Both the position numbers and the translations under genes were made by a program. Positions 21,040-23,310 of a stretch of DNA of 40,003 nucleotides are shown in pieces. The stretch is taken from the NCBI GenBank assembly GCA_019689635.1, contig JADGHB010000023.1, forward strand, positions 1 to 40,003. The letters run 5' to 3'. The notes beneath the pieces are model-generated. The model did not search any database, was not told where the DNA came from, and saw only the letters and a list, made by a program, of their open reading frames with translations. This stretch comes from Nevskia sp. (GTDB lineage Bacteria; Pseudomonadota; Gammaproteobacteria; Nevskiales; Nevskiaceae). The number at the start of each line of letters is the position of its first letter. Positions within the stretch are counted from its first letter, which is position 1.

Positions 21040-23310
21040 ATGAGCGCTGAACGATCGAGATTCCCCGAGTTCTACAAGCTGTCGGTGGCCGACCGCGTGC
21101 GGCTGATGCGCGAGCGCGGCTGGCTGTCGGAGGAAGACTACCAGGCGCTGATCTCGGGCAGCCACACCCTGCAGGTGCACAAAGCCGACAAGATGATCGA
21201 GAACGTGGTCGGCGTGCTGGGTCTGCCGATCGGCCTCGGTCTGAATTTCCTCATCAACGGCCGGGACTACATCGTGCCGCTGGCGGTGGAGGAGCCGTCC
21301 ATCGTCGCCGCGCTGTCCTCGGCAGCCAAGATCGTGCGCGCCGCCGGCGGCTTCACCGCCGAAAGCACGGACCCGATCCTGATCGGCCAGGTGCAGGTGG
21401 TGGACATTCCGCACGTGCCCAAGGCCCAGGCCGCGCTGCTGCAGCGCAAGGAGGAGATCCTCAATCTCGCCAACTCGTTGCATCCGCAGATGGTGGCGCG
21501 TGGCGGCGGCGCGCGCGACCTGGAAGTGCACCTGCACCCGCTGCCGCCGCAAAGTCCTTCGGGCCGCCGCGACATGCTGGTGCTGCATCTGCTGGTGGAC
21601 ACGCGCGACGCCATGGGCGCCAACCTGGTCAACACCATGTGCGAGGGCATCGCGGGCCTGGTCGAGACGATCACCGGCGGCAAGGTGTTCCTGCGGATTC
21701 TTTCCAACCTCACCGACCGGGCGATGGTCAAAGCGCGCTGCGCGATTCCGGTGGAACGGCTCGCCGGCAAGGGCTACGCCGGCGAGGAAGTGCGCGACGG
21801 GATCATCCTGGCCACCGACTTCGCCAGCGTCGATCCCTATCGCGCCGCTACCCACAACAAGGGCGTGATGAACGGCGTGGACGCGGTGGCCATCGCCACC
21901 GGCAACGACTGGCGCGCCATCGAGGCCGCCGCCCACGCCTACGCCGCGCGCTCCGGCCGTTACACCTCGCTCACCCGCTGGTACCGGGGCGAGCGCGGCG
22001 AACTGGTCGGCGAGATCGAGATCCCGATGAAGGTCGGCACCGTGGGCGGACCCTTGCAGTCCAATCCCAGCGTGGCGCTCAACCACCGCCTGCTCGGCGT
22101 GAAATCCGCCCGCGAACTGGCCGAGCTGATGGGCGCCGTTGGCCTGGCGCAGAATTTCTCGGCGCTGCGCGCGCTGGCCACCGAAGGCATCCAGCAGGGC
22201 CACATGACCCTGCACGCGCGCTCGGTGGCCATGGCCGCGGGCACTCCGCCGGAATTGTTCGACACCGTGGTCGAGCGCCTGATCGAATCCGGCGAGATCA
22301 AGATCTGGAAGGCGCAGGAAATCCTCGTCGAGGTACGCAAGCAGGCGCGCGCCGCGCCGGACGCCAAGCCGCAACCGCATCCCCGCGCGCACGGCCACGG
22401 CAAGGTGATCCTGCTCGGCGAGCACGCGGTGGTGTACGGCAGCCACGCGCTGGCGGCGCCGGTGCCGCTCGCCATCCAGGCGGCGGTGCAGGACGCCGAC
22501 TCCGGCGGCGTGGAGATGCTGATCCCGCGCTGGGGCGTGGAATACCGCCTGCACCGCGATCCCGCGCACCGCGACTCCTTCCAGCGTTCGCTGGGCATCA
22601 TCTTCGACCGGCTCGGCCTGACCGAGCGCTCGCTGCGCATCGAGGTGTTCCCCAACGTGCCGCGGGCCATGGGCCTGGGCGGCTCGGCGGCGATGGCGGT
22701 GGCGGTGATCCGCGCGCTCGATCAGCATTTCGACTTGAAGCTCAGCGACGAACAAGTCAACGAACTCGCCTACGAGTGCGAGAAAGTCGCGCACGGCACG
22801 CCCTCGGGCATCGACAACACCATCGCCGCCTACGGCAAGTTCCTGCTCTACCGCCGCGCGTCCGACGGCCGCCCCGCGCTGATGCGCGAGATCGTGCCGC
22901 CCAAGCCCTTGCCTTTGGTGATCGGCATTTCCGGCAAGGAAAGCCTCACCGCCAAGACCGTGGGCGCCGTGCGCGAGGCCTGGCAGAAGAACCCGGAAAT
23001 CTACGAGCGCATCTTCAAGGCCATCGACGTGCTCACCCTGCAGGGCGTGAAGGCGATCGAGGACTACGATCTGGACCGCCTGGGCGAGCTGATGAACGTC
23101 TGCCACGGCCTGCTCAACTCGCTGCGCGTGTCGAGCTGGGAACTGGAGGAGATGGTGCAGATCGCGCGCGAGCACGGCGCGCTCGGCGCCAAGCTCACCG
23201 GCGGCGGCGGCGGCGGCTCGATCATCGCCCTGTGTCCGCGCGAGCCCGAGCGCGTGCTCGGCGCGCTGCGCGACCAGGGTTATCAAGCGCTGGCGGTGAA
23301 CATTGGCTGA
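21040..23310 (+). CDS. Fusion of class II HMG-CoA reductase and mevalonate kinase
   Basis: One reading frame of 756 residues encodes two consecutive mevalonate enzymes. Residues 1-435 are class II HMG-CoA reductase: EEPSIVAA (84-91, catalytic Glu), VDTRDAMGANLVNTM, Lys274 in HNKG, Asp290 in TGND and GHMTLHAR (387-394, catalytic His). Residues about 453-756 are mevalonate kinase: GKVILLGEHAVVYGSHALA, MGLGGSAAMAVAV, GTPSGIDNTIAAYG and KLTGGGGGGSIIAL. A Pro/Ala/His-rich linker (about 436-452) joins them, with no stop or internal ribosome site that I can see. ATG 21040 has GGAG 7 bases upstream and is preferred over ATG 21034. Predicted to take HMG-CoA to mevalonate and on to phosphomevalonate. 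Confidence 0.93.
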   Translation: MSAERSRFPEFYKLSVADRVRLMRERGWLSEEDYQALISGSHTLQVHKADKMIENVVGVLGLPIGLGLNFLINGRDYIVPLAVEEPSIVAALSSAAKIVRAAGGFTAESTDPILIGQVQVVDIPHVPKAQAALLQRKEEILNLANSLHPQMVARGGGARDLEVHLHPLPPQSPSGRRDMLVLHLLVDTRDAMGANLVNTMCEGIAGLVETITGGKVFLRILSNLTDRAMVKARCAIPVERLAGKGYAGEEVRDGIILATDFASVDPYRAATHNKGVMNGVDAVAIATGNDWRAIEAAAHAYAARSGRYTSLTRWYRGERGELVGEIEIPMKVGTVGGPLQSNPSVALNHRLLGVKSARELAELMGAVGLAQNFSALRALATEGIQQGHMTLHARSVAMAAGTPPELFDTVVERLIESGEIKIWKAQEILVEVRKQARAAPDAKPQPHPRAHGHGKVILLGEHAVVYGSHALAAPVPLAIQAAVQDADSGGVEMLIPRWGVEYRLHRDPAHRDSFQRSLGIIFDRLGLTERSLRIEVFPNVPRAMGLGGSAAMAVAVIRALDQHFDLKLSDEQVNELAYECEKVAHGTPSGIDNTIAAYGKFLLYRRASDGRPALMREIVPPKPLPLVIGISGKESLTAKTVGAVREAWQKNPEIYERIFKAIDVLTLQGVKAIEDYDLDRLGELMNVCHGLLNSLRVSSWELEEMVQIAREHGALGAKLTGGGGGGSIIALCPREPERVLGALRDQGYQALAVNIG

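What the first reader, a model, noticed from the sequence alone, without database searches (positions are those of the whole stretch)
21040..23310. HMG-CoA reductase and mevalonate kinase fused in one polypeptide
Seen: one uninterrupted frame contains a full class II HMG-CoA reductase (catalytic Lys274, Asp290 and His motif present) and a full GHMP mevalonate kinase, joined by a short Pro/Ala linker. Known: these are normally separate proteins catalysing consecutive steps. Inference: the fusion fixes stoichiometry and could channel mevalonate, and places an enzyme that is often feedback-inhibited by prenyl diphosphates in cis with the committed reductase. I do not know how widespread it is.
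Basis: partly seen in the sequence, partly recalled or inferred. Interest (0 to 1): 0.75.

Follow-up and report, generated by a model that had tools for sequence, protein, structure and literature searches.

The report
Fused HMG-CoA reductase and mevalonate kinase
Two successive enzymes of the mevalonate (isoprenoid) pathway, normally separate, are made here as one protein, and relatives of this fused protein turn up in several groups of bacteria, many of which seem to lack the usual alternative route to isoprenoids.

Summary
One 756-aa frame (21040-23310, +) carries a complete class II HMG-CoA reductase and a complete mevalonate kinase, joined by a disordered linker. The window shows no credible internal start for the kinase. 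It is no assembly artefact: 61 of 80 kept named loci are fused, 8 of them in records not marked as MAGs. Eight catalytic residues are identical in 59 of 59 aligned fusions; the linker is unconserved. The gene sits in a mevalonate operon beside hopanoid genes. Of 85 genomes of the order, 36 carry the fusion and none of these has Dxr or IspH; 47 have both and no fusion. Fused reductase domains form one clade; kinase trees are less clear. Ten of the 80 loci, mostly Myxococcota, keep two separate neighbouring genes in the same order, 4 of them parted by one in-frame stop. Best reading: one old fusion of neighbours, partly spread by transfer, giving a tethered bifunctional enzyme. Channelling and feedback in cis are untested; the variable linker argues against a built tunnel. 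Nine paper searches (capped listings) showed no description.

The parts
21040..23310 (+). fused class II HMG-CoA reductase - mevalonate kinase, 756 aa
   Evidence: matches over nearly the whole length in relatives
21040..22350 (+). HMG-CoA reductase domain with its C-terminal flap (helices 384-399, 404-417, 422-438 in the model)
22354..22386 (+). linker, residues about 439-449, unconserved and predicted disordered
   Evidence: pLDDT < 50 at 439-446; mean majority fraction 0.184 over 436-450
22387..23307 (+). mevalonate kinase domain (GHMP), residues 450-756
18961..19971 (+). diphosphomevalonate decarboxylase (MvaD)
   Evidence: TIGR01240 295.7 bits against cut-off 171.35
19968..21023 (+). probable phosphomevalonate kinase; its GTG start overlaps the MvaD stop (GTGA)
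   Evidence: TIGR01220 94.1 bits, below its cut-off of 165.7, so assigned by family and place; searched as 19962-21023; junction
23303..23884 (+). isopentenyl-diphosphate isomerase type I; its TTG start overlaps the end of the fusion gene by 8 nt
   Evidence: TIGR02150 and NF002995 over cut-off; junction
23982..25118 (+). HpnH, adenosyl-hopene transferase
   Evidence: TIGR03470 540 bits against 225.05
25138..26265 (+). HpnB-like glycosyltransferase
   Evidence: TIGR03469 357.5 bits, just below its cut-off of 379.25
26393..27925 (+). divergent HMG-CoA synthase, the only one found in the genome
   Evidence: PF01154 and PF08540 over cut-off; below the NCBIfam cut-offs; one match of PF01154 in the genome

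Best explanation
The gene encodes a single-chain bifunctional enzyme. Its N-terminal class II reductase converts HMG-CoA to mevalonate, and its C-terminal kinase phosphorylates mevalonate to 5-phosphomevalonate. The kinase hangs by a flexible tether from the end of the reductase's C-terminal flap. The fusion arose most likely once, when the stop between two neighbouring genes (reductase first, kinase second) was lost, and then spread by descent and by transfer. In this organism it is the only reductase and the only mevalonate kinase found, and with no Dxr or IspH detected it should be essential for isoprenoids, including hopanoids. Shown here: one frame, both active sites present and conserved, operon context, distribution, no Dxr or IspH match. 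Inferred: that both activities are real, that the chain stays intact, that there was one fusion event, and that the gain is fixed 1:1 supply and proximity rather than true channelling.
For: Both domains pass the NCBIfam cut-offs. Eight catalytic residues are identical in 59 of 59 fusions (window included); the mean majority fraction is 0.707 for the reductase, 0.184 for the linker and 0.625 for the kinase. 61 of 80 kept named loci are fused, 58 of them full length. PMK lies close upstream in 51 of 61 and IDI1 close downstream in 42 of 61, both in 34 of 61. One match to the fusion in the own genome at E <= 0.001. 36 of 85 genomes of the order carry the gene and none of the 36 has a Dxr or IspH match. 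Fused reductases form one clade, SH-aLRT 100, among 126 rows; with 7 Myxococcota as the only outgroup both domains put 42 fused rows on one side, 100/100 and 100/99. Unfused reductase-then-kinase neighbours stand in 10 of the 80 named loci, 4 of these 10 parted by one in-frame stop.
Against: No activity has been measured. The kinase tree is less clear than the reductase tree: support 76, and in the careful tree the fused rows need 2 changes (22% of 200 bootstrap trees need 1), one fused row (L117) sitting weakly beside Myxococcota, although an AU test does not reject one origin (p 0.332). In one search nine pairs of strong splits conflict between the two domains, over where the outgroup joins and in a few local groupings, so some recombination is possible. 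In 47 fused genomes outside the order sample Dxr matches over the cut-off stand in 10, 8 of them convincing, so the fusion does not always replace the MEP pathway. One relative (L008, genome G003, counted among the 36) has an in-frame TAG inside the reductase domain.
Confidence: 0.85

Rival explanations
1. The gene is one frame, but the cell makes two proteins, by an internal start or by cutting in the linker.
For: The linker is predicted disordered, so it could be cut. In 30 of 89 parsed loci an in-frame ATG, GTG or TTG ahead of the kinase is preceded by a loose purine motif.
Against: In the window the only in-frame start codon in the stretch examined is GTG at V456, inside the first kinase strand (which starts at 450) and without the purine motif; 16 of 89 parsed loci have no in-frame start there at all. 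I ran no chance control for the loose purine motif; in G+C-rich DNA such hits are to be expected (inference).
Confidence: 0.08
2. The fusion is a sequencing or binning error in a metagenome assembly.
For: The own genome is in 101 contigs, and most named relatives are MAGs.
Against: 58 full-length fused relatives in separate records, 8 of the 61 fused loci in records not marked as MAGs (Dyella monticola, two Rhodanobacter, Salinisphaera halophila, four Cryobacterium).
Confidence: 0.01
3. The fusion is a neutral accident: two neighbouring genes lost a stop codon and the joined product works no better than two proteins.
For: Unfused neighbours in the same order exist; the linker is unconserved and the placement of the two domains is not predicted with confidence (pTM 0.64).
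Against: No unfused row falls inside the fused reductase clade among 126 rows, and the fused form recurs in records of several named phyla. This is weak evidence, since the 80 named loci were the best-scoring ones.
Confidence: 0.35
4. It is a degradative reductase, as the name of TIGR00532 says, used to break down mevalonate.
For: The reductase half matches the model named 'degradative' and P. mevalonii HMGR.
Against: It is fused to mevalonate kinase and lies between PMK, MvaD and IDI; the genome has an HMG-CoA synthase and no Dxr or IspH match.
Confidence: 0.03

Closest known systems
Class II HMG-CoA reductase, P. mevalonii type (PDB 1qax, 9dg2)
   Same: Whole fold with flap and catalytic residues; 50-54% identity to P. 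mevalonii chains
   Different: The PDB chains matched are reductase-length; here a kinase follows the flap
Mevalonate kinases of archaea, bacteria and Leishmania (PDB 6mde, 2oi2, 2hfs)
   Same: GHMP fold and motifs, 28-34% identity in these rows
   Different: The PDB mevalonate kinase chains matched are kinase-length; here the kinase has no start of its own
Enterococcal MvaE, acetoacetyl-CoA thiolase - HMG-CoA reductase (the fusion is recalled; PDB 7m1z, a 430-aa E. faecalis reductase chain, bears the name acetyl-CoA C-acetyltransferase)
   Same: A class II reductase fused to another enzyme of the same pathway
   Different: There the partner is the thiolase, two steps earlier, at the N-terminus; here it is the next enzyme, at the C-terminus
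IspDF of the MEP pathway (named in PMC13001223, passage seen)
   Same: A fusion of two isoprenoid-pathway enzymes, said there to be common
   Different: Other pathway, and the two steps are not consecutive
Unfused HMGR-MK neighbours (L124, L127, L129, L136, L138, L144, L148, L151 Myxococcota; L137, L146 Bacillota)
   Same: Same families and same gene order
   Different: Two genes with a stop between them

Membership tests
Class II HMG-CoA reductase (TIGR00532, PF00368) | Score over the curated cut-off along nearly the whole model | tested here: met
   421.8 bits against 259.95, model positions 19-395 of 395
Class II HMG-CoA reductase (TIGR00532, PF00368) | Catalytic Glu, Lys, Asp and His at the P. 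mevalonii positions (roles recalled) | tested here: met
   E85, K274, D290, H388 by the alignment; identical in 59 of 59 fusions
Class II HMG-CoA reductase (TIGR00532, PF00368) | Fold with C-terminal flap | tested here: met
Class II HMG-CoA reductase (TIGR00532, PF00368) | Reductase activity with NADH or NADPH | not testable with these tools
   Needs an enzyme assay
Mevalonate kinase (TIGR00549, GHMP) | Score over the curated cut-off along the whole model | tested here: met
   240.4 bits against 163.05, positions 2-276 of 276
Mevalonate kinase (TIGR00549, GHMP) | Catalytic Lys, Ser, Glu and Asp (roles recalled) | tested here: met
   K455, S549, E581, D592 identical in 59 of 59 fusions
Mevalonate kinase (TIGR00549, GHMP) | Kinase activity on mevalonate and its feedback behaviour | not testable with these tools
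   Needs an enzyme assay
Bifunctional HMGR of the MvaE kind | Thiolase domain at the N-terminus (recalled) | tested here: not met
   Pfam and NCBIfam list no thiolase match for the protein at E <= 0.001; the reductase starts at residue 3

The most novel reading that the evidence does not exclude
The kinase is tied to the one part of the reductase that must open and close, the flap that carries the catalytic His (H388). Closing of the flap and binding of mevalonate or ATP by the kinase could therefore be linked, so that the fused enzyme hands mevalonate over at each flap opening, or the kinase, when inhibited by downstream products, holds the reductase open. This would be a covalent control of the committed step of the pathway in bacteria that lack the MEP route.
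Probability: 0.12. Interest if true: 0.72.

Novelty: new variant of a known kind. Interest (0 to 1): 0.42.

Why it matters
HMG-CoA reductase is the controlled step of the mevalonate pathway (recalled). A natural single chain for this step and the next one, found in records of several named phyla and apparently the only isoprenoid route in many of them, is a ready part for pathway engineering and a test case for whether fusing consecutive enzymes helps flux. It also bears on annotation: none of the 22 NCBIfam models that match the protein spans both domains, and the matching reductase model is named 'degradative' although this operon looks biosynthetic.

Tried and rejected
Tried without use: of 58 plasmid records with a match, 0 cover 80% of the query. 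L071 looked at first like another kind of fusion; it is a reductase behind a long open stretch in which the profile finds no mevalonate kinase. In L044, L045, L049, L050 and L054 a GHMP-like frame follows the reductase (seen by eye; their likeness to Legionella and Coxiella clusters is recalled), but the kinase profile does not call it MK.

Rejected: sequencing error, internal start, degradative role (see rivals).

The trees left out 24 named fused rows as near-duplicates or copies, and rows shorter than 300 (reductase) or 220 residues (kinase). One search left out 9 long or odd kinase rows (one of them, L131, fused) and took 42 chosen fused rows. One search took the same 42 and 7 Myxococcota, leaving out L136, L048 and both Bacillota. 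One search parsed 89 of 100 fused loci; 11 lacked my motif pattern. One search examined 50 genomes (47 fused, 3 unfused) of the loci then held, the most one call allows; their completeness was not told. Searches scored at most 2 candidates a genome. DXR type II was not searched for.

Full report
WHAT IS THERE. The frame 21040-23310 (+) is open for 756 codons. The stretch upstream is open too, but GGAG at 21029-21032 stands 7 nt before ATG 21040. Pfam and NCBIfam give a class II HMG-CoA reductase (TIGR00532, residues 3-393) and a mevalonate kinase (TIGR00549, residues 453-731), both over their NCBIfam cut-offs. By alignment to the P. mevalonii enzyme the catalytic residues are E85, K274, D290 and H388 (roles recalled). 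The kinase's K455, S549, E581 and D592 are in place (roles recalled). All eight are identical in 59 of 59 aligned fusions, the window included.

SURROUNDINGS. The fusion lies between a probable phosphomevalonate kinase (19968-21023, 16 nt upstream) and a type I isopentenyl-diphosphate isomerase (TTG 23303, overlapping the fusion's end by 8 nt). Diphosphomevalonate decarboxylase stands before the phosphomevalonate kinase, overlapping by GTGA. HpnH, an HpnB-like glycosyltransferase (just below its cut-off) and a divergent HMG-CoA synthase follow on the same strand; HpnL, HpnJ and HpnI lie upstream on the other strand. So the locus makes isoprenoid units next to genes that use them for hopanoids. 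PF01154 finds one HMG-CoA synthase in the genome, and the fusion protein finds only itself at E <= 0.001.

ONLY ROUTE? Among 85 genomes of the order, 36 carry the fusion gene: 17 of 18 in the genus counting the window's own, 2 of 2 in one other genus of the family, 17 of 17 in a second family. Of these 36, G009 shows only residues 2-294 and G005 residues 3-693, both at contig ends, and G003 has an in-frame TAG. Dxr (PF02670) was found in 47 and IspH (PF02401) in 47, in none of the 36. Two genomes have neither fusion nor Dxr nor IspH: G010 (88% complete) and G033 (76%). Outside this sample the split is less clean: of 47 further fused genomes, 10 have a Dxr match over the cut-off, 8 of them convincing (L076, L085, L093, L108, L130 over the full domain; L114, L116, L126 in two pieces) and 2 weak (L087, L112). 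Both Rhodanobacter and the three Cryobacterium searched therefore seem to hold both pathways. IspH was not searched in that set.

HOW WIDESPREAD. In a class-wide sample 10 of 369 genomes hold the fusion, one of them (G263) seen only from residue 372 on, at a contig end. In a phylum-wide sample 2 of 398 do, the own genome included. By record name the 61 are Pseudomonadota 41, Calditrichota 7, Actinomycetota 6, Acidobacteriota 3, Planctomycetota 2, unassigned 2; most are MAGs, so single odd names such as Nakamurella may be binning errors. Eight fused records are not marked as MAGs. The nearest named relatives in that scan are labelled Nevskia sp. (81%) and Sinobacteraceae (80%).

ORIGIN. Reductase domains of all 76 fused rows form one clade among 126 rows (SH-aLRT 100, quick tree). 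The nearest unfused rows are 12, of which 11 are labelled Myxococcota and one Lujinxingiaceae. The quick kinase tree also needs one change (support 76). In a careful kinase tree with two long Bacillota rows the fused rows need two changes: L117 sits beside Myxococcota with weak support (75/67); an AU test does not reject one origin (p 0.332). With 7 Myxococcota alone as outgroup, both domains put the 42 fused rows on one side (100/100 and 100/99); 10 strong splits are shared and 9 pairs conflict, mostly about where the outgroup joins and a few locally. In both trees Cryobacterium groups with rows of the order's second family, which points to transfer of the fused gene. In 10 named loci reductase and kinase are neighbours in the same order; in 4 (L124, L127, L129, L136) the kinase frame follows the reductase stop directly in the same frame.

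MECHANISM. Most likely the fusion secures equal amounts of two consecutive enzymes and keeps mevalonate near its next enzyme. A built tunnel is unlikely given the linker. Coupling of the flap to the kinase is possible and testable, and is given as the novel case.

LITERATURE. Nine paper searches showed no title or abstract start that describes this fusion; four of these listings were cut (20 of 27, 20 of 56, 20 of 80 and 15 of 24 papers shown). One search searched six direct names and found two papers with unrelated titles. A 2026 review of bacterial isoprenoid pathways (PMC13001223; passages only) has the word 'fusion' once, for IspDF, and 'fused' not at all. The library leaves out most subscription journals, and protein databases, which I could not search, may already show the domain pair, so 'not described' is limited to these searches.

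Noticed in passing
window 5934-7052, about 7828-9249 and about 9303-10403 (-): HpnL, HpnJ and HpnI on the minus strand make the window a combined mevalonate and hopanoid cluster.
   Followed up: partly
window 16906-18920 (+): A response regulator and histidine kinase pair (best NCBIfam matches PmrA/QseB and QseC, below cut-off) directly upstream of MvaD; histidine kinases stand upstream of MvaD in L079 and L081 too. Possible regulator of the operon.
   Followed up: partly
window 26393-27925 (+): HMG-CoA synthase of 510 aa, well below the NCBIfam cut-off (159.2 against 360.35 bits for TIGR01835) yet the only copy found.
   Followed up: partly
L140 9004-11448: The stretch between the domains of a Cryobacterium fusion is 87 aa and holds tandem repeats of a short unit, so length is tolerated.
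   Followed up: no
L008 (G003) 3346-3348: In-frame TAG inside the reductase domain of a close relative; cause unknown.
   Followed up: no
G010: A same-genus genome (88% complete) with neither the fusion nor Dxr nor IspH, most simply a missing contig.
   Followed up: no
window 28096-33645 (+): Methylisocitrate lyase, 2-methylcitrate synthase and pyruvate carboxylase follow the cluster.
   Followed up: no
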